A stretch of DNA of 23,042 nt from a virus. The stretch covers positions 1 through 23,042 of IMG/VR virus record IMGVR_UViG_3300036768_000068; one strand, given 5' to 3'. The translations under genes and the position numbers were made by a program. Each line of letters starts with the position of its first letter. The stretch's first letter is position 1. The notes below the pieces were generated by a model. The model worked only from the letters and a program-made list of their open reading frames with translations. It made no database searches and was not told where the DNA came from. Positions 634-23,042 of the stretch are shown here, piece by piece.

Positions 634-1203
634 ATGATCATGAGCTACAACGAGCTGCGCAGTCAAGTCCAGAATATCATGATGACGCCGGTGCCCGATG
701 AACACGTCAACGCAGCCAGCATCGACGTCACGCTAGGGCCGATCTTCTGGGTGGAGTCGCTGACGCCGGAGCAGGGCCTGGGTGTATTGTTGCGCGAATG
801 TCGCGGTATGTCGATGGCAAAACTGACGTTGACGCCAGGGCAGGTTTTATGGTTGATGCCTGGACAGTTCGTGCTGGCTGCTACGGCCGAGACTTTCAAT
901 CTACCGCTGGATGTCAGCGCGGAGTTCAGGCTCAAGAGCAGCGCGGCGCGCATAGGGCTGAGTCATGCGCTGGCGGTATGGGCCGACCCAGGCTGGCACG
1001 GATCGGTGCTAACGCTGGAGTTGCACAATATCACGCAACACCATTCCATCGGGCTACAGATGGGCGACCGAGTGGGGCAGATGATCTTCCACAAGCACGC
1101 TCCGGTGCCGTTGTCCGCTAGCTACGCAAAACGGGGCGCCTACAACAACGATCGAGCTGCTCAACCTGCCAAGCCTAGGGTAAATACTGACATCAACAAC
1201 TGA
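634..1203 (+). CDS. dcd: dCTP deaminase (Dcd/dUTPase superfamily)
   Basis: Deaminates dCTP to dUTP in the cytoplasm, providing the precursor of dUMP. The 189-residue product is close to the usual family length (about 190). The family signature is clear: a substrate loop LKSSAARIGL at about 100-109 (S103 and R106 match the conserved Ser and Arg), then ADPGWHGSVLTLELHN with E129 in the position of the catalytic Glu, then a C-terminal strand ending GQMIFHK. The start at 634 is chosen because AGGAG at 623-627 is 6 nt upstream; the frame stays open further upstream without a better site, and ATG 640 is an alternative. In this phage dUTP could feed the predicted dUMP hydroxymethylase at 16704-17756. 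A bifunctional dCTP deaminase-dUTPase is possible and cannot be told apart by eye. Confidence 0.88.
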   Translation: MIMSYNELRSQVQNIMMTPVPDEHVNAASIDVTLGPIFWVESLTPEQGLGVLLRECRGMSMAKLTLTPGQVLWLMPGQFVLAATAETFNLPLDVSAEFRLKSSAARIGLSHALAVWADPGWHGSVLTLELHNITQHHSIGLQMGDRVGQMIFHKHAPVPLSASYAKRGAYNNDRAAQPAKPRVNTDINN

Positions 1204-1206
1204 GCG

Positions 1207-1233
1207 TCAAAACGCACGCAGAAGCAATTTTTG
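1207..1233 (+). repeat. 27-bp intergenic repeat, copy 1
   Basis: This starts just after the dcd stop codon and matches 11157-11183, which lies just after the helicase stop, at 22 of 27 positions. Both begin TCAAAACGCA and end CAATTTTTG. Its core GCAATTTTTGC has 4-bp inverted arms around TTT; the other copy has ACAATTTTTGT, so both arm ends changed together. It may be a protein-binding site or an RNA 3'-end element. The function is unknown. Confidence 0.5.
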
Positions 1234-1350: not shown

Positions 1351-1378
1351 CAAAACCCGACTGAGTTGAAGGGTTTTG
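1351..1378 (+). terminator. Hairpin with T-rich 3' arm; candidate terminator of the dcd operon
   Basis: CAAAACCC at 1351-1358 pairs with GGGTTTTG at 1371-1378 across a 12-nt loop. The 3' arm ends in four Ts, as in weak intrinsic terminators. It lies 148 nt after the dcd stop and only 3 nt before the -35 box of the following promoter, so it could equally be an upstream operator. A perfect palindrome, GGGACGTCCC, sits at 1327-1336. Confidence 0.4.
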
Positions 1379-1439
1379 CTATTGACTTGCGATCAAAGAC
1401 GTCTCAGAATCCGTTTCACGGTGAACGCAACGCACCGTA
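1377..1439 (+). promoter_or_regulatory. Sigma70-like promoter within a 63-bp duplicated regulatory element, copy 1
   Basis: TTGACT (1382-1387) and CAGAAT (1405-1410) are separated by exactly 17 bp, a good -35/-10 arrangement. The spacer ends in the palindrome AGACGTCT (1397-1404). A second dyad, TTCAC-G-GTGAA (1415-1425), covers the expected transcription start. The same 63 bp recur at 11327-11389 with one difference. It should drive the unit beginning at 1471. Downstream, the pentamer CGTAA is tandemly repeated at 1441-1455 just before the AAGGAG site. The rest of the 1204-1470 gap holds no gene. Confidence 0.75.
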
Positions 1440-1470: not shown

Positions 1471-1677
1471 ATGAACACTACCCGCACCGCAACCAAGCCG
1501 CGCACCCGCCTCTGCACGGCGGTCGAAGTAGCCAAGTATGAAGCCGCCGTGGCACCTTTGCTCGCCATGCCGGTGGGAACCGCCCGCCAAGAAGCCATCT
1601 TCAAGCTGCGCGAGAGCATGGGCATCTTCGTCAACTTCGGGTCTGGCCGTCGCGTGTACCGCGTCTACAATCGTTAA
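1471..1677 (+). CDS. Small basic unknown protein (68 aa), first gene after promoter copy 1
   Basis: ATG at 1471 follows AAGGAG (1457-1462) with 8-nt spacing. The product is basic, with an N-terminal Thr/Arg/Lys-rich tail (MNTTRTATKPRTR) and a C-terminal segment GSGRRVYRVYNR. The middle, VEVAKYEAAVAPLL and ARQEAIFKLRESMGIFV, looks like two helices. As the first gene after a strong promoter it could be an early host-takeover or DNA-binding protein, but this is inferred only from position and charge. I do not recognise the family. Confidence 0.65.
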   Translation: MNTTRTATKPRTRLCTAVEVAKYEAAVAPLLAMPVGTARQEAIFKLRESMGIFVNFGSGRRVYRVYNR

Positions 1678-9435: not shown

Positions 9436-9790
9436 AGCTAGCATCGAGGAGTGGGTGGCGCGCCAGGCGTGGGAGCGCTACGGGGTTCCGTCCATACACC
9501 TGGGCCTAGTGGGTAATACGGGGTGGCCGGACAGGCTGTTCATCTTGCCAGCCGGCCGCACTCTGTGGATCGAGTTCAAGCAACCGGGCGAGCCTTTGCG
9601 TAAGCGCCAAGAGCTGACCCGCGACATTTTGGAGTACAGGCACCATGACTACCAAACGCACGACAACCGAGAGACTGCCCTCACAGCCGTCAAAGCCGCG
9701 TTGGACTCCGCACAGCTACCAACGCAAGGCGGTCAAGTTTCTGCTGGAGCACGGCGCAGCCGCCCTGTTCCTCGACCCCGGCCTGGGTAA
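9425..9790 (+). CDS. VRR-NUC domain nuclease
   Basis: A predicted structure-selective endonuclease of the VRR-NUC (PD-(D/E)XK) superfamily, common beside phage helicases. The core is seen in GNTGWPDRLFIL (D36) and TLWIEFKQPG (E50, K52), followed by the helix with LRKRQELTRDIL and a final strand/helix HDYQTHDNRETALTAVKAALD. The start is GTG 9425, overlapping the GNAT stop by 11 nt. The conserved domain ends near residue 94; the remaining 28 residues (SAQLPTQGG...RPVPRPRPG) are low complexity and are encoded inside the helicase gene, which overlaps this frame by 146 nt. The tail may therefore be a by-product of the overlap. Confidence 0.85.
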   Translation: MRVEASIEEWVARQAWERYGVPSIHLGLVGNTGWPDRLFILPAGRTLWIEFKQPGEPLRKRQELTRDILEYRHHDYQTHDNRETALTAVKAALDSAQLPTQGGQVSAGARRSRPVPRPRPG

Positions 9791-11138
9791 GACCAGCATC
9801 GCCATAGCGGCTTGTAAGGTACTGCTGAAGGAGGGCGCCATGACGGGTGCGTTGGTGGTTGCACCTTTGCGGCCGGCGCACACTACTTGGCCCAGCGAAG
9901 TATCCAAGTGGGCCGACTTCGACGGCATCAAGCTCACCGTGCTGCACGGTGGCGATCTCATGCGCAAGGTGAAGGACGGCGCTGACATCTTCGTTATCAA
10001 CTACGAGGGGCTGGTTAAGTTGTTCGCCAGGCGCAAAGTTGGTAAGGTGTGGAAGTATGAGTTGACTGAGCTGGGCAAGGAGTTGATGAAGCGTGCGGAT
10101 ACCCTCATTTGGGACGAGTTGTCCAAGATGAAGAATCCCGCCAGCCTGCGTTATACGCTGGTTAAGCCATGGCTGCACAAGTTTGTGCGTCGTTGGGGTC
10201 TGACCGGGTCGCCTGCCAGCAATGGGTTGCTGGACTTGTTCGGTCAGTGTTACGTACTGGACGAGGGCAACGCTCTGGGCCCGTACATCACGCACTATCG
10301 TGCCGCCTTCTTTTTGCCCAACGACAACATGGGTTACACCTGGCGGCTGAAAGAAGGCGCTGAGAAGGCTATCTATGACAAGCTTCGACCCTTGGCGCTG
10401 CGGATGGACGCCGAAGACCATCTGAGCTTGCCGGTGCAGCTGGACATCCCCATTAAGCTGGACCTGCCCGCCGAAGCCCGTCGCGTGTACAACGAGCTGG
10501 AAGATGAGCTACTGACAATGGTGAATGGCGAGCTGGTCACAGCTGTCAACCAGGCGAGCGCGAGTAGTAAGTGCCGCCAGGTGTGTTCCGGCGCGCTGTA
10601 TCGTCACGTCATCGATCCCATCACCGGGGCGCCTAAGCAAGGGGACCGTGCGTGGGTCCGCCTTCATGACGAAAAGCTGGACGCCTTGGCGGAGCTAGTT
10701 GACGAGTTGCAGGGGCAGCAGTTGCTGGTGGCGTATGACTTCAACCACGATCTTGAACGCTTGCTTGAGCGTTTCCCCAATGTGCCGCACATCGGCGGTG
10801 GCGTGAGCGCTAAGCGTGGGGCGGAGCTTGAGCGCCGGTGGAACGCGGGCGAGCTTCCAATGATGTTTGCTCACCCAGCATCCGTGGGGCACGGCCTGAA
10901 TCTTCAGGCATCGCATGCCAATCACATAGCGTGGTTCACGCTTACTTGGGACTACGAGCTGTATGACCAGTTCAACCGTCGCCTGCGACGTCAGGGCAAC
11001 AAGGCCAGCCATCTCAGAGTGTATCACCTCGTGATGCGCGACACCGTCGAGGAGTCGGTGGCCTTCGCGCTGCGGCGCAAGTTCAAGACCCAGAAGCAGT
11101 TGCTCGACGCCCTGAAGTCCAAAAAGCGTCTTGATTGA
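9645..11138 (+). CDS. SNF2-like superfamily 2 helicase/ATPase
   Basis: A DNA-dependent ATPase acting in replication or recombination. The 497 residues carry motif Q-like HSYQRKAVKFLL, Walker A DPGLGKTS (K49), motif Ia VVAPLRPAHTTW, the Walker B-type motif IWDELSKMKN (D157-E158; DELS in place of DEAH), motif III LTGSPASNGLLDLF, and in domain 2 HGLNLQASHANHIAWF and QFNRRLRRQGNKA with the arginine finger of motif VI. The start is ATG 9645 with GGAG at 9631-9634; no other usual start lies between it and the first conserved residues. It overlaps the VRR-NUC gene by 146 nt. It is the last gene before the second regulatory region, suggesting the end of a transcription unit. Confidence 0.92.
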   Translation: MTTKRTTTERLPSQPSKPRWTPHSYQRKAVKFLLEHGAAALFLDPGLGKTSIAIAACKVLLKEGAMTGALVVAPLRPAHTTWPSEVSKWADFDGIKLTVLHGGDLMRKVKDGADIFVINYEGLVKLFARRKVGKVWKYELTELGKELMKRADTLIWDELSKMKNPASLRYTLVKPWLHKFVRRWGLTGSPASNGLLDLFGQCYVLDEGNALGPYITHYRAAFFLPNDNMGYTWRLKEGAEKAIYDKLRPLALRMDAEDHLSLPVQLDIPIKLDLPAEARRVYNELEDELLTMVNGELVTAVNQASASSKCRQVCSGALYRHVIDPITGAPKQGDRAWVRLHDEKLDALAELVDELQGQQLLVAYDFNHDLERLLERFPNVPHIGGGVSAKRGAELERRWNAGELPMMFAHPASVGHGLNLQASHANHIAWFTLTWDYELYDQFNRRLRRQGNKASHLRVYHLVMRDTVEESVAFALRRKFKTQKQLLDALKSKKRLD

Positions 11139-11156: not shown

Positions 11157-11183
11157 TCAAAACGCATGCTAGAACAATTTTTG
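11157..11183 (+). repeat. 27-bp intergenic repeat, copy 2
   Basis: Partner of 1207-1233 (22 of 27 identical), placed 18 nt after the helicase stop. The core reads ACAATTTTTGT, keeping the dyad of copy 1 by a double change. No gene is seen in the 11139-11409 interval. Confidence 0.5.
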
Positions 11184-11326: not shown

Positions 11327-11389
11327 TGCTATTGACTTGCGATCAAAGACGTCTCAGAATCCGTTTCACGGTGAACGCAACGCGCCGTA
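11327..11389 (+). promoter_or_regulatory. Sigma70-like promoter within the 63-bp duplicated regulatory element, copy 2
   Basis: TTGACT (11332-11337), a 17-bp spacer containing AGACGTCT (11347-11354), and CAGAAT (11355-11360), with the TTCAC-G-GTGAA dyad at 11365-11375. It differs from 1377-1439 only at 11384 (G for A). It should drive the unit from 11410 that includes the hypermodification genes. The conservation of spacer and start region, beyond the boxes, points to selection on a bound regulator as well as on RNA polymerase. Confidence 0.75.
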
Positions 11390-11409: not shown

Positions 11410-11739
11410 ATGCAAACGCTGAAGATTGAAATTGCCGAGAGCCAACAAGACTTGCTCGCTTTGCACATCAGCACCGGCCTGACCTTCCACTCTAACCATC
11501 GCGCCGCTGCGATGGAGCGCCTGGGTAATTCGCACGCTAGCTTGTTCGTAGACACCAAAGATGGCGTTTCTGGCTACTTCGTCAACGTGGTGGCGATTGA
11601 AGGCCAAGCCTGGCGCCAATGGGTCGCCAAAGAAGGTAACTTGGACTTCTGGCAAGCCGTCAACCGCATGGCGACTCTTGGCACTATGTCACTGAGCGAC
11701 TTCGCGTTGGCTCTGAGCGACATGCAGCAAATTTGCTGA
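11410..11739 (+). CDS. Unknown protein (109 aa), first gene after promoter copy 2
   Basis: ATG 11410 follows AAGGAG (11398-11403). The frame is open upstream to 11317, but that part overlaps the promoter element and is not expected to be translated. The product looks like a small alpha/beta domain: MQTLKIEIAESQQDLLALHI, then a His/Asn-containing stretch AAAMERLGNSHASLFVD, strands around GYFVNVVAIEGQAWRQWV and a C-terminal helix LSDFALALSDMQQIC. It has no visible catalytic motif. It does not resemble the gene at 1471, although the two share the same promoter element. Confidence 0.65.
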   Translation: MQTLKIEIAESQQDLLALHISTGLTFHSNHRAAAMERLGNSHASLFVDTKDGVSGYFVNVVAIEGQAWRQWVAKEGNLDFWQAVNRMATLGTMSLSDFALALSDMQQIC

Positions 11740-11772: not shown

Positions 11773-11867
11773 GCGCCTTGCGCGCATGTTGCACTCTTTA
11801 CCCGACGCTTGCACTCCGCTAGACTTCCGCTTGCTGCTGACCGCAACCAGCAATCTAGGAGCCGACA

Positions 11868-12062
11868 ATGATCCACTTTGTAATCAGCACCCACAACGGC
11901 CGCAAGATAGCCGTGGCAGCGCCCGAAGGCGCCGTGATGTTCAAAGTCGCGAGTCTGTTGCAAACCCACTACGGCTGCAACGTCGCCATCTTGCAATTTA
12001 TTTCGGAGCTGGAGCACTCCGGCTATCGCGACAAGATCACGCTGGGTGAGGAGGTGCTGTGA
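11868..12062 (+). CDS. Small unknown protein (64 aa)
   Basis: ATG 11868 has TAGGAG about 8 nt upstream, and the stop TGA (12060-12062) shares a base with the next ATG. The product begins MIHFVISTHNGRKIAVAAPE and continues with a helix VMFKVASLLQTHYG and a strand NVAILQFI, which suggests a compact alpha/beta fold. No known family or motif is recognised. Overlap coupling with the following gene suggests that the two act together or need matched levels. Confidence 0.6.
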   Translation: MIHFVISTHNGRKIAVAAPEGAVMFKVASLLQTHYGCNVAILQFISELEHSGYRDKITLGEEVL

Positions 12063-12934: not shown

Positions 12935-13801
12935 ATGTCCCACTATTCCATCGAGGATTTTGGAGCCGCGCTTATCAAGACCGGCGACCTGGACCCTGTA
13001 TATCACGCCATCAGCGGAGCGGGTTTAGACGAGTCTACAGCCCACCGGCTGTGTCTGGCCTACTGGTGCCTGTATCACTTAGGCGCCGCTGCCAAGCTGG
13101 CCGAAATCAAGCAACCTGCGAAGTTTTGGGCGACGCTGATGGATGCGGCTGTCAACGATGGTAGACGATGGCCGCGCGGAAGTGAACGGCGCCACTTCAG
13201 AGCTGCTAACGCGGTCAACGCTGTAGAGTACCTCAAGGGTCGTTACAAAACCGCCACTGACGCAGTTTTTTACATGCTTTGGGGTGGGCGCGAGGTCTCA
13301 TTTGCCGACGTCGCAGCCCGTGTGCGCACGCACGTGGGCTTCGGTCCCTGGATCGCCTTCAAGATCGCGGACATGGGTGAGCGCGTGTTGGGCGCCCGAG
13401 TTGACTTCAGCAACTGCGAGCTAGGTATCTACAAAGACCCTCGCCAGGGCGGCGCACTCGCATTCGTTGAAAACTTGGCCGCTAAGGTGATGGACTCGCC
13501 ACCTTCGATCGACGTCTATAAGCCTTGGGAGTATCCGATCAGTGATGAGCAATTAGCGCTCACCATTGAGCATTACGTCAAGCACTTCAGCAAGTTTAAG
13601 GCGCCGCCTAGTGGTGACCGCAAGGTCAACGTCCAAGAAGTCGAAACCATATTTTGCAAGTACAAGAGTCACCGCAAGGGACATTACCAGCTAGGCAAAG
13701 ACGCCCGAGAAGTCGCCCATGGATTGATCGGTTGGGGCGATCTGGCCGACCAGCTCAAGACCGGCTTGCCAGACATATCCAAGCAACCTCAACTATTCTG
13801 A
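12935..13801 (+). CDS. aGPT-PPlase clade 3-like protein (predicted thymine hypermodification)
   Basis: It resembles the alpha-glutamyl/putrescinyl thymine pyrophosphorylase clade 3 family, DNA-glycosylase-related enzymes predicted to displace the (pyro)phosphate on 5-(pyrophosphoryloxymethyl)-dU in DNA with an amine-bearing group. Of 288 residues, the recognisable parts are GDLDPVYHAISGAGL near 17-31, LCLAYWCLYHLGAA near 39-52, the charged WPRGSERRHFRAANAV near 82-97, and the helix-hairpin-helix-like GFGPWIAFKIADMGERVLG near 134-152 that should contact DNA. Recognition is from memory of the family pattern. The start at ATG 12935 has GGAG 6 nt upstream. It is first in the row with the FAD enzyme, kinase and clade 2-like protein. 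Clade 3 proteins are less studied, and a role in DNA repair cannot be excluded. Confidence 0.65.
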   Translation: MSHYSIEDFGAALIKTGDLDPVYHAISGAGLDESTAHRLCLAYWCLYHLGAAAKLAEIKQPAKFWATLMDAAVNDGRRWPRGSERRHFRAANAVNAVEYLKGRYKTATDAVFYMLWGGREVSFADVAARVRTHVGFGPWIAFKIADMGERVLGARVDFSNCELGIYKDPRQGGALAFVENLAAKVMDSPPSIDVYKPWEYPISDEQLALTIEHYVKHFSKFKAPPSGDRKVNVQEVETIFCKYKSHRKGHYQLGKDAREVAHGLIGWGDLADQLKTGLPDISKQPQLF

Positions 13802-13808
13802 CGACGTT

Positions 13809-14681
13809 ATGGCACGCAAATACAACATCATCGTCGTGGGCAACGGGCTGTTCGGCTCAATTGCCGCCACCCTAGCACGCGCTCATGGACACACGGTCAC
13901 GGTCATCAGCGCCGACGTCCCAAATAGCGCCAGTAAAGCCTCTGGTTGCGTGCTCGCCCCAAGCTGGCTCAACAGCATGGAGCGTTCGCAGATCGACGCC
14001 GCCATGGGCGTACTAGGTGAGCTGTACACCATCCACGATCTGGAGTTCCGCACCAACCTGTTCAAGACATTCAAAGCTACTCGCGTGGTGCCTAGTGACG
14101 TTCTGGTACCGCCCGACATCAAGGCTCGCGTGCTGGAGGTGGGTGATGGCTGGGTGACTTACACGACGGACGAAGCCCGGCTACAACCGGCTGTCAAGCT
14201 CAAGGGCAAGGTGTTGGTAGCTGCCGGCGTCTGGTCTTTCGACCTGCTCGCCGACAACGAAGGCATCGACCGTTACGCCATGAAGGGCCTGTGGGGCGCC
14301 TCGCTGACCGTTAAGGCTCAGTTGGAAGTTCCGCGCATCCATGTGTATGCGCCCTACAAACAAGCGGTGGCCTTCAACATGGACCGCCGTCACGTATGGA
14401 TGGGCGACGGTACCGCGCTGACGGAGAGCACATGGATCAAGGAGCAAGAACAACGTTTGCGTCAGACCGCCGCACGCGCTGCCGAGCTGTTTGGCCTGCC
14501 CACCGAAGTCGGCAGCAAACCGGTGCGCGCTACCGTGGGGGTGCGCCCTTACGTCGAAGGTCACAAGTCCGGATTTTTCGAGCGCGTGACCGCCAACACC
14601 TGGGTGTCCACAGGCGGGGCCAAGAATGGCACCGTGCTAGCTGCCTGGCAAGCCTACAAGTTCATCAAGGAGTTGCCGTGA
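13809..14681 (+). CDS. DAO-like FAD-dependent oxidoreductase; predicted flavin lyase of base hypermodification
   Basis: A flavoenzyme of the D-amino-acid/glycine oxidase fold. Of 290 residues, the N-terminal Rossmann motif is IIVVGNGLFGSIAA (G-x-G-x-x-G) followed by a strand TVTVISAD, and KVLVAAGVWS near 136-145 is the second FAD-contact segment. GVRPYVEGHKSG and WVSTGGAKNGTVLAAW near the C-terminus match the end of DAO enzymes. It is short for the family (usually 350 or more), as in phage forms. Flavin-dependent lyases cut amino acids attached to thymidine in hypermodified phages, leaving an aminomethyl group. Location between two transferase-class genes and next to the kinase supports that role. 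Its stop overlaps the kinase start (GTGA). The ribosome binding site is weak. Confidence 0.8.
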   Translation: MARKYNIIVVGNGLFGSIAATLARAHGHTVTVISADVPNSASKASGCVLAPSWLNSMERSQIDAAMGVLGELYTIHDLEFRTNLFKTFKATRVVPSDVLVPPDIKARVLEVGDGWVTYTTDEARLQPAVKLKGKVLVAAGVWSFDLLADNEGIDRYAMKGLWGASLTVKAQLEVPRIHVYAPYKQAVAFNMDRRHVWMGDGTALTESTWIKEQEQRLRQTAARAAELFGLPTEVGSKPVRATVGVRPYVEGHKSGFFERVTANTWVSTGGAKNGTVLAAWQAYKFIKELP

Positions 14682-15274
14682 TCATCAACATTCGAGGCAC
14701 TCACGGTAGCGGTAAGAGCACAGCTGTGCGGCGCGTCATGGGCAAGTGCATTGCCGTCAATCCGGTGTCTTCGGGCCAGCGTATCGCGGGCTACCACTGC
14801 TTGCTGCCCAACAAGCAAACGCTGTTTGTGCTGGGCGATTATACCAACGCCTGCGGCGGTGCTGACGGCATACAGCCGTACAGCGCCATCTGGCCGCGCG
14901 TGGCCGATGCTGCTGCGGTCTTCGATCACGTGATGTTCGAGGGCGCGCTGATTAGCACGACTTACGGCAGCATTGGTCAGGCCGCCGATGCATATGGCGC
15001 GGATTTCGTTTTCGCTTTCTTGGACACGCCTTTGGACGTCTGCGTAGCGCGCGTCAATCAACGTCGTGCTGCGGCCGGCAAGCCGCCGCTCCGCGACACT
15101 AAGAGTATCGACAGCAAGTGGGTTACTATCAGCCGCCTGTACGACAAGCTGAGCGCCGGCGCCATTGTGACCGCTAACCGCAACGTGACGATTAGCTATC
15201 TGACGCCAGCTAAGGACTTGCTCAAGTTGTTGGGCATTCGCGCGAACAAAGAACCGACTTATGAAGCCGCTTGA
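14678..15274 (+). CDS. P-loop kinase, probable 5-hydroxymethyl-dU DNA kinase
   Basis: A 198-residue P-loop NTPase with Walker A GTHGSGKST at residues 7-15 (K13), a Walker B-like strand HVMFEGALIS near 87-96 and an Arg-rich lid RVNQRRAAAGK near 127-137. Small kinases of this type next to aGPT-PPlases are the 5-hydroxymethyluridine DNA kinases that phosphorylate hydroxymethyl groups in DNA before amino-acid transfer. The start is GTG 14678, preceded by AAGGAG (14667-14672) and overlapping the FAD gene stop; longer upstream readings overlap that gene. It could instead be a nucleotide kinase making hydroxymethyl-dUTP, an activity not otherwise found in the window, but the neighbourhood favours the DNA kinase. 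Confidence 0.78.
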   Translation: MIINIRGTHGSGKSTAVRRVMGKCIAVNPVSSGQRIAGYHCLLPNKQTLFVLGDYTNACGGADGIQPYSAIWPRVADAAAVFDHVMFEGALISTTYGSIGQAADAYGADFVFAFLDTPLDVCVARVNQRRAAAGKPPLRDTKSIDSKWVTISRLYDKLSAGAIVTANRNVTISYLTPAKDLLKLLGIRANKEPTYEAA

Positions 15275-16184
15275 GTTTGATCGCTGGATATACTACATGC
15301 GCGAGCGCCACAACATTTACCTGCTGCGGCAAGCGGGCAAGCCAGCTCCTTGGACTAATGACGCGGTGTTGAGTCAATACCGCTTCTGCAACGTGTACCG
15401 CGAGCTGGACAAGGTCACTATTTGGATACGTGAGCATATCCGCGAGCCGTTTGCTGATCATCCGTTTTTGTGGTTCATGCTCGCCATTGCGCGTCGCATT
15501 AACCTGCCGGCTACACTCGCAGAATTGATAGCCGACAAGAAGGGCGCTTGGCCTGATATTGCGACGTCGAAAGCGGGCGCGTCTGTAGGCAAGTGGAATC
15601 CTGACCGCATGGTGCAGCTACTCGATGACCGCACGAAGCGTGGCGAGCAGGTATACACTGGGGCCTACATGATAACAGGTGAGGCTAAGCCGGAACATAT
15701 CGGCAAGACCAAGAGCCGCACCACGGTTTTCAGCAACCTGCTGCCGCTTTGGCAGAAAGCCGGCGTCATCGAACCGCAGTTGCACCATACCCTGCAAGGC
15801 GCCTTTCAGGCCCTTCTAGGCCAGGGTTTTGCGTGGGGGCCTTTCATGTGTTATGAAGTGGTGAGCGACCTGCGCCATACACGCTACCTGTGCGACGCCC
15901 CGGATGTCCTCACCTGGGCCAACGCGGGACTTGGGGCTCTACGTGGGTTGAACCGCCTCCACGGCCGCCCGCTCAAGCAGGCGCAGAAGCCCGATGCGGC
16001 GTGCGCCGAGATGCAAGAGTTGTTGGAGCTGACGCGCAGGGAGTGGCCGCGCCCGTCGACCAAATTTCCCCGCCTGGAAATGCGCGAAATTGAGCACACG
16101 TTGTGCGAGTTTGATAAATACATGAGAGTGGTGACTGGCGAGGGTGTCCCACGTTCCAAATACCGACCACCCCGCAACAACTGA
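15261..16184 (+). CDS. aGPT-PPlase clade 2-like amino acid:DNA transferase
   Basis: Predicted to attach an amino acid to activated 5-hydroxymethyl-dU in DNA. Of 307 residues, the N-terminus has the family pattern: WIYYMRERHNIYLLRQAGKP at about 8-27, PWTNDAVLSQYRFCNVYREL at about 29-48, then WFMLAIARRINLPATL, plus a middle segment GAYMITGEAK near 134. GQGFAWGPFMCYEVVSDLRH at about 192-211 is the helix-hairpin-helix-like, DNA-contacting part and ends in a conserved-looking Asp-Leu-Arg. The C-terminus has LEMREIEHTLCEFDKYMR. Known clade 2 enzymes of phages such as M6 and ViI use free amino acids (for example glycine). The start ATG 15261 overlaps the kinase by 14 nt, indicating coupled translation. 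Confidence 0.8.
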   Translation: MKPLEFDRWIYYMRERHNIYLLRQAGKPAPWTNDAVLSQYRFCNVYRELDKVTIWIREHIREPFADHPFLWFMLAIARRINLPATLAELIADKKGAWPDIATSKAGASVGKWNPDRMVQLLDDRTKRGEQVYTGAYMITGEAKPEHIGKTKSRTTVFSNLLPLWQKAGVIEPQLHHTLQGAFQALLGQGFAWGPFMCYEVVSDLRHTRYLCDAPDVLTWANAGLGALRGLNRLHGRPLKQAQKPDAACAEMQELLELTRREWPRPSTKFPRLEMREIEHTLCEFDKYMRVVTGEGVPRSKYRPPRNN

Positions 16185-16195
16185 AGGAGCCGACA

Positions 16196-16690
16196 ATGAG
16201 TGAAATTAGCCGAACCATCGACTGGTTCATCAAAGCGGGCCAAATGGCCGCCAACCAAAAACCAGACCCGCGACAAACTGCCTTCTACCTAGGCATGCAG
16301 GTCGAAGAATTGGCCGAAAAGTTAACCGCCAGCGGAGTGTTCACTCGCTTGGCGAAGGGCAACCAGCTGGAAGGTCTGCTGACCGCGCTGGCTGCTGAGC
16401 TCAAAACCGGGGGCATGGACGATGTGGTGAAAGCTGCCTTCATTCACGGCCGGGCCGTCGATATGTTGGACGCTGACATGGACCTCATCTGGGTATCTAT
16501 AGGAGCCGCAGCGGCTCAGGGCGCTGACCCTGTAGGCGCCTACGCGGCTGTAACTGACGCCAACTGGGCTAAGTTTCCTGGCGGCGTCGTGACCAAGCAC
16601 CCAGTGACCGGCAAAGTCATCAAGCCCGAAGGTTGGACGCCGCCCAATTTGACGCCGCACCTCCACTCCAGTCTTGCCAAGGTCAACTGA
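16196..16690 (+). CDS. MazG/HisE-like NTP pyrophosphohydrolase
   Basis: An all-alpha NTP pyrophosphohydrolase that should cut a (d)NTP to (d)NMP and pyrophosphate. The 164 residues include FYLGMQVEELAEKL (the ExxE metal-binding helix), a later helix DMLDADMDLIWVSIGAAAAQ (ExxD-like second site) and the phage-typical tail DANWAKFPGGVVTKH...VIKPEGWTPPNL. AAGGAG precedes ATG 16196, 11 nt after the clade 2 gene. Directly before the TS-fold gene, it is a good candidate for turning dUTP into dUMP substrate or for removing dTTP so that hydroxymethyl-dU replaces T; both are inferences, and the specificity is not readable. Confidence 0.8.
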   Translation: MSEISRTIDWFIKAGQMAANQKPDPRQTAFYLGMQVEELAEKLTASGVFTRLAKGNQLEGLLTALAAELKTGGMDDVVKAAFIHGRAVDMLDADMDLIWVSIGAAAAQGADPVGAYAAVTDANWAKFPGGVVTKHPVTGKVIKPEGWTPPNLTPHLHSSLAKVN

Positions 16691-16703
16691 AAGGATACCG
16701 CCC

Positions 16704-17756
16704 ATGTTCGTCAAAGTCATTGCTACGCGCAATCCCAACACCGCGCTGGAATCAGCCTTGTGGTACCTGAAAATATCCGGCGTCGTCAACGACAGCCGTA
16801 ATGGACGTGTAGTTCAGGCCCCTGGACCTGTTATCACCACCTACACGTATCCGCAGCAGCGAGTTGTGTTCAGTGCCCTACGTGACGCCAACCCGTTTTT
16901 TCACCTGTACGAAGCCCTGTGGATGCTAGCCGGACGCAAAGACGCAGAAAGCGTGAGCCGCTACGCCAAGCAGATGGGCGCATTCGCCGATAACGGCCAG
17001 CTGTGGGGCGCTTATGGATGGCGCTGGCGTGAGTTTTTCGATTTCGACCAACTCAAGACGTTGATCGCAATGCTCAAGGCCGACCCCAAGACCCGCCGAG
17101 CCGTACTGACCATGTGGTCGCCAGTCGGCGATCTGGTGCCCACCACGAGCGGTGAAGGCGGTGCGGCGTCGGCCAAGGATGTGCCTTGCAACACGCACGT
17201 ATACTTCAGCGCCGTTAACGGCGTGCTGGACATGACGGTATGCAACCGCTCCAACGACATCATTTGGGGCGCCTACGGCGCGAACGTGGTGCATATGAGC
17301 ATCCTGCAGGAGTTCGTAGCCAGTGCAGTCGGTATCCCGATGGGTGCGTATCACCAATTCAGCAATAACTTTCACGCCTACGTTGACCGCCCCGACGTCC
17401 AGCGTTTGATTGACACTGCCGGGCCGACTAGCGCGTGGGTGATCAAGTACGCCAGCGATGACCGCTACACGTGCGGCAAAGAGTTAGCCCAGCTACCGCT
17501 GGTGGGTTATAGCAACTGGCAACTTTGGCTTGACGAGTGCGAGCGCTTCGTGGACGATCCGGGACGCGACCATTATGCATGGCGGCACACGTTCTTCCGG
17601 CGCGTCGCGGGGCCGTTGATGTGCGCTCACGCTGCTTACAAGGCTGGGGACGTCCTCGAAGCCATCCGCATGGCAAAGCGCTGCGACGCTGAGGACTGGG
17701 CCTTGGCTGCCGCTGAATGGTTGACCCGTCGCAATAAGCACTTGGGGGTGGACTGA
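16704..17756 (+). CDS. Thymidylate-synthase-fold enzyme, probable dUMP hydroxymethylase
   Basis: Converts dUMP with methylene-tetrahydrofolate to 5-hydroxymethyl-dUMP (or to dTMP if a true synthase). Of 350 residues, the fold is clear from LWGAYGWRWREFF near 98-110, the phosphate-binding TRRAVLTMWSPVGDL near 131-145, VPCNTHVYFS near 163-172 with the catalytic Cys, CNRSNDIIWGAYGANVVHMS near 183-202 and NNFHAYVDR near 222-230. Canonical synthases have PPCH, GLPFN and DxHxY at these places; here the His after Cys is Asn and the GLPFN segment is GAYGAN. The Asn that selects uracil over cytosine appears kept. The start at 16704 has AAAGGA (16690-16695). Context with the kinase and transferases favours hydroxymethylase. 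Confidence 0.82.
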   Translation: MFVKVIATRNPNTALESALWYLKISGVVNDSRNGRVVQAPGPVITTYTYPQQRVVFSALRDANPFFHLYEALWMLAGRKDAESVSRYAKQMGAFADNGQLWGAYGWRWREFFDFDQLKTLIAMLKADPKTRRAVLTMWSPVGDLVPTTSGEGGAASAKDVPCNTHVYFSAVNGVLDMTVCNRSNDIIWGAYGANVVHMSILQEFVASAVGIPMGAYHQFSNNFHAYVDRPDVQRLIDTAGPTSAWVIKYASDDRYTCGKELAQLPLVGYSNWQLWLDECERFVDDPGRDHYAWRHTFFRRVAGPLMCAHAAYKAGDVLEAIRMAKRCDAEDWALAAAEWLTRRNKHLGVD

Positions 17757-20734: not shown

Positions 20735-23026
20735 TCAAGCAAACATGCCGGTCTGCGAGCCTTTGAGCACTAGAACAGCCTGATGAGTGTTGTCACTGCC
20801 CAATACGGCGCGAGGCGAACCGCTTATGTCCATTTCCCATTGGTACTCGTCGATCATGGCGCCGTACCACGCGCCGCGCAAGCTTTGCGTTAGGTACTGT
20901 CCCCAAGGCCCGTTGAGCGACGAAGCCACAAACAGCCGCGTGGTTTCGTAGTTAGCAGCGCTATAGCTGGGATACAACCAGGCGCCGTTGAGCTTGAACG
21001 GAGCCGGCTGCTGACTCGGCCACCATTGCGGTAACTCGCAGGCGTTGGACGACCAGTTGATGCCGTCGTTGGTTTCCATCACCACGTTGAGACCGTTGGA
21101 AAGAGCGCGCATGTAGCCGTCCGATTGGATCTGCGCCACGGAGCCGCTCGCGGGACGTTGAGGCATGGACCGTGCGGTCCAGGTGAGTCCGTCGGTACTG
21201 GTCCAGTAGAAAGCGCTGCCCTTTCGTTGAATGATTGCCATGCTGCCTAGACGCTTCTTGTTGACGTAGTTGATGGCGCTACTGCTGTTCGTGTTCAGGA
21301 CAGCGGTGAACGCAGTAGCGGTGCCGTCGGTAGAACGCATCAGCAAACCGTTGGAGCCGCCGATGAACCAGTTGCCGTTACCGTAGACTACGCTGCTCAG
21401 CGTCTCAGTGCTGAGCTCTACCTGCTGCGTCCAATTGACGCCGTCTGTACTAGTCAGCACCGTGCCGTTGGCGCCTACGGCCACGAAACGGCTATTGCCG
21501 TAGGCCACGCGGTTGAGATTCTGCGTCGTGCCACTAGTGCGCGCGGTCCATGTGATACCGTCTGGGCTGGTCAAGATGGTTCCGGCGTTGCCAACAACCG
21601 CCCACAACGCTCCCGAACCAGCCACCCCGCTGAGATTCTGTGTTGTACCGCTAGTGCGCGCGGTCCATGTGATACCGTCTGGGCTGGTCAAGATGGTTCC
21701 GGTGTCGCCCGCGACCACGAATTGGCCAGCAATAGCTGCGACGCCTCGCAACGATTGACCCGTGCCGCTGGCTCGATTGGTCCAGGTAGTGCCCGGGGCG
21801 GTGGAAGACATGAGCGTGCCCCCGTTGCCTACGGCAACCCAGGTGGTAGCACTGCCCATGTAGGCCACATCGAACCAGTTGCCGGATGGAGTCGTCACGT
21901 TGCTCCACGAATCACCGCTGTTAGTGCTGTACTGTAAGGACGTGCTACCGAACGGCACGCCCACTACGGCACCGCTGCCGTTAGTAGCGAGGGCGCGCAG
22001 GTCCACAGACGTCGCCAACGTGCGGGCTGTCCAACTAGTACCGTTAGTGCTGTTAGCGGCCTGCGTAGTAGCTGAACCGTTGAGCGTACCGCCTACGATC
22101 AACGTGGTGGTGCTAGCGTTGTACGCAATGGCCTGTAGCGACGGGGTGTGTCCGAAAGGCAACGGGTTAGTGCCGCCGTTGGTCCACGACGTACCGGTGG
22201 CGCTAGTTTGGTACGTGCCGGTGGCGCTGGCGAGCTGCTGTAGTGCGAAGTAGGTGGAGCCAGCAAATCCCAACGCGTGAGTCGCGTTAGCCAAAGCCGA
22301 GCTGGTGTGCGCCCAGCTCACTCCGCTGTCAGTGGACTTAAGGATGCCCAGACCGCTCGTGGCCATGATAACTTCGACACCTTGGCTGGCTACTGCGTCG
22401 ATGGTGTACGCACTGGGCAGGTTGCGAGTCGTCCAAGTTTCACCGTCTGGGCTAGTCCGAATAGCGGACATACTGCCGGATGCCGCTAACGCAGCAAAGT
22501 TGGAACCCCACTTGTAGATGCGGTGCTGCGTCGCTCCGCTGTTAATCATGACTTGTTTGAACACCGTCTCACCCGCGCTAACAGGCCGAAAACCGGTGTT
22601 GTCGCTGAAGATGTTGCGAGCCTGAAGCACGACCAACTCAGTCCATTCTGGCGCTACTCCCGGGGTCTTGGTAGTAACATCTGACACGTTAGTATTCAGC
22701 AGCCAGTATTTGCCGTTGTGCGTAACGCTAGCCGGCTTATTCAACGCGCCGGACAAGGTACTCCAAGCGCCCTTGTAATTGGCCGCAGCTAGCAATGTAG
22801 TGGCTGACGTGGCAGCAGCGTTAGCTGAGTTGGCCGCCGACGTGGCCGCGTCGTTAGCGGTAGCCGCGTGAATAGAGGCGTTGAGCTCGCTGTTGCTGAC
22901 CGCAGCCTGAAGCGCGTTGGCTTCAGTTGCAAAGGTAGGCAAAGCGCCCAGAAATGTGTCTGCCCTGGAGCTGAAGTTGGCCGGGTCTTGACGCGACGGC
23001 GGGGTGGGAAGTGCGGTGATAGGCAT
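20735..23026 (-). CDS. Large tail protein with Asp-box beta-propeller repeats
   Basis: Probably a tail fibre or tailspike-type host-recognition protein. The N-terminal 75 residues (SRQDPANFSSRADTFLGALP, then an Ala/Asn-rich helix AATSAANSANAAATSATT) match the virion-attachment end of phage tail proteins. From about residue 180 there are roughly ten Asp-box-like motifs S-x-D-G-x-x-W, such as SPDGETWT, STDSGVSW, STNSGDSW, SPDGITWT twice, STDGVNWT and STDGLTWT, with VAVGNGGT-type strands between them, as in sialidase/YCF48-like beta-propellers. ATG 23026 is preferred; TTG 23032 adds two residues. Two repeat units are almost identical in DNA. The start of any upstream gene is outside the window. 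Confidence 0.85.
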   Translation of the reverse strand: MPITALPTPPSRQDPANFSSRADTFLGALPTFATEANALQAAVSNSELNASIHAATANDAATSAANSANAAATSATTLLAAANYKGAWSTLSGALNKPASVTHNGKYWLLNTNVSDVTTKTPGVAPEWTELVVLQARNIFSDNTGFRPVSAGETVFKQVMINSGATQHRIYKWGSNFAALAASGSMSAIRTSPDGETWTTRNLPSAYTIDAVASQGVEVIMATSGLGILKSTDSGVSWAHTSSALANATHALGFAGSTYFALQQLASATGTYQTSATGTSWTNGGTNPLPFGHTPSLQAIAYNASTTTLIVGGTLNGSATTQAANSTNGTSWTARTLATSVDLRALATNGSGAVVGVPFGSTSLQYSTNSGDSWSNVTTPSGNWFDVAYMGSATTWVAVGNGGTLMSSTAPGTTWTNRASGTGQSLRGVAAIAGQFVVAGDTGTILTSPDGITWTARTSGTTQNLSGVAGSGALWAVVGNAGTILTSPDGITWTARTSGTTQNLNRVAYGNSRFVAVGANGTVLTSTDGVNWTQQVELSTETLSSVVYGNGNWFIGGSNGLLMRSTDGTATAFTAVLNTNSSSAINYVNKKRLGSMAIIQRKGSAFYWTSTDGLTWTARSMPQRPASGSVAQIQSDGYMRALSNGLNVVMETNDGINWSSNACELPQWWPSQQPAPFKLNGAWLYPSYSAANYETTRLFVASSLNGPWGQYLTQSLRGAWYGAMIDEYQWEMDISGSPRAVLGSDNTHQAVLVLKGSQTGMFA
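21534..21702 (-). repeat. 117-bp tandem repeat in the tail protein gene
   Basis: 52 bp at 21534-21585 are identical to 21651-21702, 117 bp apart, and similarity continues on both sides (TGAGATTCTG at 21514 and 21631). The unit encodes 39 residues centred on SPDGITWTARTSGTTQNL. Silent identity across 52 bp points to recent duplication or gene conversion. Confidence 0.85.
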
Positions 23027-23042
23027 GGTCAAATCATCCCTT

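What the first reader, a model, noticed from the sequence alone, without database searches (positions are those of the whole stretch)
1377..1439. 63-bp promoter-operator element duplicated 9,950 bp apart
62 of 63 bases agree with 11327-11389, including the TTGACT-17-CAGAAT promoter, AGACGTCT in the spacer and TTCACGGTGAA at the start site, while the flanks and first genes are unrelated. Such tight identity in a non-coding element suggests common control of two units (replication and hypermodification) by one regulator, or a recent duplication.
Basis: seen in the sequence. Interest (0 to 1): 0.65.

Follow-up and report, generated by a model that had tools for sequence, protein, structure and literature searches.

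The report
Paired phage promoters with 5' hairpin
A virus of bacteria carries two almost identical switches, each a predicted promoter whose RNA would begin with a small hairpin, one before its DNA-replication genes and one before its DNA-modification genes; related phages keep a switch of the same design at the same two places although the letters differ, so the hairpin probably matters and may protect the start of the message.

Summary
Confirmed: 1377-1439 and 11327-11389 agree at 62 of 63 bases, in two intergenic regions (after a dCTP deaminase gene and after an SNF2-type helicase gene). The 63-mer was found nowhere else I could search. It is not part of a longer close repeat, although a second block 170 bp upstream (1207-1233 / 11157-11183, 22 of 27) sits at the same offset.
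Best reading: a sigma70-type promoter (TTGACT-17-CAGAAT) plus a hairpin at the predicted 5' end of the RNA (ACGGTG-9-CACCGT, 1418-1438). The only base change (A1434 to G11384) keeps the pairing as U.G. A window scan for promoter plus start-site hairpin finds three + strand sites, all intergenic: these two and one at 11797-11853. Phages with related helicases carry promoters of the same geometry just downstream of the helicase; their hairpins start at the same distance from the -10 box and covary. A covariance model of that family does not detect the window copies, so I claim the same design, not proven membership.
The proposed operators (AGACGTCT, TTCACGGTGAA) are not conserved. The shared 17-base spacer, unconstrained among relatives, points to recent copying or gene conversion. 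Likely role, inferred: 5'-hairpin stabilisation of coordinated transcripts.

The parts
1377..1439 (+). Copy 1 of the 63-bp element: promoter plus 5' leader hairpin, between the dCTP deaminase gene and a 68-aa ORF
11327..11389 (+). Copy 2 of the element, between the helicase gene and a 109-aa ORF; 62/63 identical to copy 1
1382..1410 (+). Copy 1 core promoter TTGACT-17-CAGAAT
   Evidence: the post-dCTP-deaminase site of L075 shares CAAAGACG..CAGAATCCGTT
11332..11360 (+). Copy 2 core promoter TTGACT-17-CAGAAT
1418..1438 (+). Predicted hairpin at the RNA 5' end: ACGGTG / AACGCAACG / CACCGT; A1418 is the likely +1
11368..11388 (+). Same hairpin in copy 2; the single base change turns a U-A pair into U.G
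1207..1233 (+). Upstream block of copy 1 (TCAAAACGCACGCAGAAGCAATTTTTG), alike to that of copy 2 at the same offset; also conserved after the dCTP deaminase gene of L075 (E 1e-6)
11157..11183 (+). Upstream block of copy 2
11797..11853 (+). Third promoter-plus-hairpin site of other sequence: TTTACC-17-TAGACT, stem TTGCTG (11831-11836) / CAGCAA (11848-11853)
   Evidence: L004 and L073 have a similar -10 region there with other stems. In longer context the minimum-energy fold of the window leader is a different one
640..1203 (+). dCTP deaminase-like gene upstream of copy 1
   Evidence: Pfam PF22769, E 1.6e-31
1471..1677 (+). First ORF after copy 1 (68 aa), conserved in L075 (65% identity) directly after its promoter
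9645..11138 (+). SNF2/DEAD-type helicase, last gene before copy 2
   Evidence: Pfam PF00176, E 1e-17
11410..11739 (+). First ORF after copy 2 (109 aa), no family match

Best explanation
Each copy is a sigma70-type phage promoter fused to a transcribed hairpin that starts at, or within a base or two of, the +1 position. Host RNA polymerase is expected to start near A1418 / A11368, so that the first six bases of each mRNA (ACGGUG) pair with CACCGU (or CGCCGU), leaving almost no free 5' end. I infer that this hairpin hinders 5'-end-dependent decay (RppH conversion, then RNase E) and so gives the replication and hypermodification transcripts matched output. The two sites are old: relatives have a promoter-like element at the same two positions. 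The near-perfect identity of this pair, spacer included, most likely reflects a recent copying or gene-conversion tract between two pre-existing promoter sites. Shown by sequence: the pair, its placement, the promoter geometry, the hairpins and their covariation in relatives. Inferred: transcription start, protein-independent stabilising role, conversion.
For: Window: a joint scan for promoter hexamers plus a 6-bp stem starting 5-8 bases after the -10 box gives 3 sites on the + strand, all intergenic; shuffles average 0.55. The one difference between copies preserves pairing. Closest relatives repeat the arrangement with unrelated letters: L004 carries a pair after dCTP deaminase and after helicase (54 nt, 87%, E 9e-10), L073 too (161 nt, 66%, E 6e-13) with stems CAAC/GTTG vs CAAT/ATTG in its two copies, and L075 has stem GATCAAG/CTTGATC. 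Wider family: stems of 5 bp or more begin at index 7 or 8 after the -10 box in 24 and 18 of 47 modules (1.7 and 1.6 expected); 92.6% of cells pair, 4 of 6 pairs change on both sides, slid controls 6-45%. Promoter pattern seen 46 times against 0.7 expected. Loops vary from 4 to 11+ bases, which suits RNA better than a dimer's DNA site. A 5' hairpin is known to stabilise bla mRNA by impeding RppH (PMC3997798). Conversion: spacer identity 17/17 against about 30% in the family; the -10 half matches the post-deaminase site of G007/L075 (p 0.002), the leader half its post-helicase site (p 0.02-0.03).
Against: The family covariance model does not find the window copies, so homology to the wider family is not shown. 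A stem as good as the window's arises in about 22-27% of shuffled leaders when its position is left free; only its exact place makes it unusual. L004's post-deaminase copy has only a weak stem and L073's post-deaminase copy a poor -10 box. Several modules in the family (the leftmost promoters, L016, L054) lack a hairpin. No transcript data exist; stabilisation is inferred from analogy. The 47 modules are not independent.
Confidence: 0.52

Rival explanations
1. One reading: a promoter-operator. A phage or host regulator binds the palindromes AGACGTCT and/or TTCACGGTGAA in both copies and switches the two units together.
For: Both palindromes are perfect and lie where a repressor would compete with polymerase; L052, AXL_3 and L004 also have 10-12 base palindromes in the spacer.
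Against: Neither palindrome is kept at the orthologous site of L075; 8-base spacer palindromes 5 of 43 against 1.9 expected, shuffles up to 6; same-genome copies in the family have unrelated spacers. The palindrome at the start overlaps the hairpin arm, which explains it otherwise.
Confidence: 0.15
2. The hairpin is a binding site for an RNA-acting regulator, such as an antitermination element acting on polymerase near the start (as put RNAs of HK022 do, from my own knowledge) or a site for a phage RNA-binding protein, not a passive stabiliser.
For: The hairpin covaries and is locked to the start site; copies sit upstream of long units.
Against: Loop sequence and length are not conserved, and in the window's own clade stem sequences differ entirely, unlike a protein- or polymerase-recognised RNA.
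Confidence: 0.15
3. Simply a recent duplication of an intergenic segment with no shared function; identity reflects recency only.
For: 17/17 spacer identity exceeds what functional constraint gives in the family; sharp edges.
Against: Three other lineages keep a promoter-like or paired element at one or both of the same positions; the copied tract coincides with promoter plus hairpin, and the one change keeps pairing.
Confidence: 0.12
4. A short shared coding sequence: both copies lie in the same reading frame of overlapping small ORFs (AIDLRSKTSQNPFHGERNAP).
For: The one difference is at a third codon position in that frame.
Against: No common start, no conservation of the peptide in L075, and one difference is no test.
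Confidence: 0.02

Closest known systems
5'-terminal mRNA-stabilising stem-loops (ompA, papA, engineered bla; Emory, Bouvet and Belasco, reviewed in PMC3997798)
   Same: Hairpin placed so that the RNA 5' end has almost no unpaired bases
   Different: Here it is fused to promoters repeated in a phage genome; no start-site mapping or half-life data
Promoter early stem-loops (PeSLs) of T4-type phages (Arbiol et al. 2010; Comeau et al. 2014; known here only through PMC4503421 and PMC4177764)
   Same: Small promoter plus stem-loop cassettes repeated in intergenic regions and thought to mediate exchange by recombination
   Different: By their published title these are promoter-terminator composites; here the stem-loop follows the promoter at the RNA start and has no U tract
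Start-associated sequences SAS/ESAS of Cluster K mycobacteriophages (PMC3203893)
   Same: Repeated non-coding elements with inverted repeats and variable spacers before a subset of phage genes
   Different: SAS are 13-bp repeats at translation starts; here the conserved unit is at the transcription start
Helicase-downstream promoters of Stenotrophomonas phage AXL_3, Pseudoxanthomonas phage PW916 and many IMG/VR contigs (found here)
   Same: Position after the homologous helicase, 17-base spacing, covarying start-site hairpin, copies before other units
   Different: These share TTGAAAATAGGTGTTTACA-like upstream sequence, ATCACGGTC and CTTGCTGAGGA, which the window lacks

Membership tests
Helicase-downstream promoter-hairpin family (model R1) | Lies in the intergenic region directly downstream of the SNF2-type helicase gene | tested here: met
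   Copy 2 starts 189 bases after the stop codon; in relatives mostly within tens of bases
Helicase-downstream promoter-hairpin family (model R1) | -35 and -10 hexamers 16-18 apart, stem starting 7-8 bases after the -10 box | tested here: met
Helicase-downstream promoter-hairpin family (model R1) | Detected by the covariance model of the family | tested here: not met
   No hit at either copy even with filters off
Helicase-downstream promoter-hairpin family (model R1) | TTGAAAATAGGTGTTTACA upstream and CTTGCTGAGGA ribosome site | tested here: not met
5'-terminal mRNA-stabilising stem-loop | 5' end paired or with very few free bases | tested here: inconclusive
   Predicted flush if +1 is A1418 / A11368; start not mapped
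5'-terminal mRNA-stabilising stem-loop | Prolongs half-life in an RppH/RNase E dependent way | not testable with these tools
   needs experiment
T4-type PeSL cassette | Composite of early promoter and transcription terminator | tested here: not met
   The stem-loop lies downstream of the promoter and has no T tract
SAS/ESAS | 13-bp GGGATAGGAGCCC-type repeat at translation starts | tested here: not met
   The repeat ends 31 and 20 bases before the start codons and holds no such motif
Repressor operator | Palindrome conserved at orthologous promoters | tested here: not met
Rfam family | Match above gathering score | tested here: not met
   No match in window and four relatives

The most novel reading that the evidence does not exclude
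A widespread group of phages marks its transcription units with a regulon-wide 5' cap substitute: promoters that build a start-flush, freely evolving hairpin into most of their mRNAs, with copies in some genomes homogenised by recombination so that replication and DNA-hypermodification genes stay matched.
Probability: 0.25. Interest if true: 0.7.

Novelty: new variant of a known kind. Interest (0 to 1): 0.45.

Why it matters
If right, a whole group of phages with known isolates (AXL_3, PW916) encodes mRNA protection in its promoters rather than in a protein, and the position-locked, covarying hairpin gives a simple way to find transcription starts in metagenomic phage genomes. It also offers natural matched pairs for testing how 5' hairpins set mRNA lifetime outside E. 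coli. The promoter-hairpin family is not mentioned in the AXL_3 genome paper (the word promoter does not occur there) and did not match Rfam; my literature search covered open papers only.

Tried and rejected
Mobile repeat or plasmid-borne element: no other copies found. Operator palindromes: not conserved. Membership of the wider family by covariance model: negative; the model also finds nothing in M6, KPP23 or the new closest contigs. Duplication of the whole intergenic region with uniform divergence: only 1207-1233 remains alike, the stretch 1234-1376 is not above chance. Concerted evolution in the wider family: leaders are not more alike within genomes than between them (45% vs 48%, permutation p 0.74), so conversion is claimed for this pair only. 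Shared peptide: no support. MAFFT alignment of window and relatives misplaced the 3' arms (A1), so the pair count was made on relatives only. Search for PolA relatives in GTDB genomes gave none, so the host is unknown. Rho-independent terminators near the copies: nothing convincing. Some more distant relatives (for example L025, L029, L043-L046) have no such promoter after the helicase.

Full report
What is there. The window is a whole 23,042-base IMG/VR virus record, probably a fragment. On the + strand two blocks run left to right. The first holds a dCTP deaminase-like gene, then copy 1, then a ligase, a PolA-type polymerase, nucleases and an SNF2-type helicase; the second starts after the helicase with copy 2 and holds an amino acid:DNA transferase, an FAD oxidoreductase, 5-hmdU DNA kinase parts and a thymidylate-synthase-like gene. 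The 63-bp pair is exact as described.

Edges. Outside the 63 bases similarity falls to chance on the right and, on the left, over 1234-1376 (31%, 9% of placements as good). A second block, 1207-1233 against 11157-11183, agrees 22/27 at exactly the same offset of 9950, better than any other place in the window, and is also recognisable after the dCTP deaminase gene of L075 (E 1e-6). So each regulatory region has two conserved pieces, and the core is the younger identity.

Relatives. Helicase and PolA searches brought 56 and 6 viral contigs. In the closest ones the same two positions carry promoter-like elements whose sequence differs from the window's. L004 has a near-repeat in the deaminase-ligase region (2310) and right after the helicase (11532), 54 nt at 87%. 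L073 has one after the deaminase (713) and one after the helicase (13950), 161 nt at 66%. L075 has CAAAGACGCCCACAGAATCCGTT after the deaminase, followed by the homologue of the window's 68-aa ORF; its contig ends in PolA, and the start of the same contig (L157) holds the helicase with a promoter-like stretch TAGAGTCCGGTCTCAGCGGTG after it. The pair in L157/L075 is not tight, which shows that tight identity is not obligatory.

Wider family. About 50% identical helicases, including those of Stenotrophomonas phage AXL_3 and Pseudoxanthomonas phage PW916, are in many cases followed within tens of bases by TTGAAAATAGGTGTTTACA-17-TAnnAT, ATCACGGTC..GACCG and CTTGCTGAGGA before the next ATG, with variations. 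The core promoter pattern occurs 46 times on the + strands against 0.7 in block shuffles. A model of 18 modules (R1) finds copies before other units as well: three in L056, six in MW202621, two in AXL_3. MW202621 has two copies identical over 47 bases from the -10 box to the ribosome site but with different spacers.

The hairpin. Scanning all 47 modules (the window's two included), stems of at least five pairs begin at index 7 or 8 after the -10 hexamer 24 and 18 times (1.7 and 1.6 expected), and hardly above chance elsewhere except index 9. On a sequence-only alignment of 18 relatives 92.6% of cells pair, four of six pairs change on both sides, no shuffle of 500 reaches the covariation score, and sliding the 3' arm drops pairing to 6-45%. 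The window copies show a six-pair stem in the same place; their only difference keeps it as U.G. A third window site (11797-11853) and its counterparts in L004 and L073 have start-site stems of quite different sequence, though the window's third leader folds otherwise in longer context. Variable loops and freely changing stems argue for RNA rather than for a DNA-binding dimer.

What it does. With +1 at A1418 / A11368, seven to eight bases after the -10 box, the RNA would start inside the stem. It is established that a hairpin at the 5' end can stabilise an E. coli mRNA by impeding RppH (PMC3997798). I take this as the most likely role, at about even odds; no transcript evidence is available. 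An antitermination or protein-binding role would predict conserved loops, which are not seen.

Why so alike. In the family, copies in one genome share the functional pieces but not the spacer (33% within, 29% between genomes). In the window the spacer is identical. The spacer and -10 half matches the post-deaminase site of L075 (p 0.002) and the leader half the post-helicase site of the same contig (p 0.02-0.03), while the flank of copy 2 resembles the post-helicase flank of L157 (p 0.04). These p-values are single, uncorrected tests. They suggest that one promoter was recently copied over the other, or that the two have exchanged pieces, at sites that already had promoters.

Limits. The window's copies are not detected by the family model and lack its flanking motifs, so common descent with the wider family is not shown, only common design and position. 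Modules are related to each other, so counts overstate independence. The host is unknown. Literature was limited to open papers; the T4 PeSL papers themselves were not available.

Noticed in passing
window 11797-11853: Third promoter-like site with a start-site stem (TTTACC-17-TAGACT, TTGCTG/CAGCAA) before the 64-aa ORF at 11868, with counterparts of other stem sequence in L004 (11 pairs) and L073.
   Followed up: partly
L061, positions 24352 and 35135 of its reverse complement (MW202621): Two promoter-leader copies identical over 47 bases from the -10 box to the ribosome site, with different -35 and spacer.
   Followed up: partly
L004 11516-11570: Perfect 17-base inverted repeat AACCGGAACTTCGGGTT ... 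AACCCGAAGTTCCGGTT spanning the promoter after the helicase; possibly an operator or terminator.
   Followed up: no
relatives L010-L056, upstream of the -35 box: Strongly conserved TTGAAAATAGGTG before TTTACA, in L022 and L056 an inverted repeat TGTAAA..TTTACA; may be a regulator site of that group, absent in the window.
   Followed up: no
window 1207-1233 and 11157-11183: Small near-palindrome RCAATTTTTGY in a block 170 bp upstream of each promoter, also in L075 as GCAATTATTGC; role unknown.
   Followed up: partly
window 21504-21716 (- strand gene 20735-23032): 96-base repeat, 88% alike, 117 bases apart within a large repetitive protein with a DUF6242 match, next to lysis genes.
   Followed up: no
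window 12935-17756: Thymidine hypermodification cluster (amino acid:DNA transferase, DAO, split 5-hmdU DNA kinase, thymidylate-synthase-like) on a phage unrelated at DNA level to any phage record searched.
   Followed up: partly
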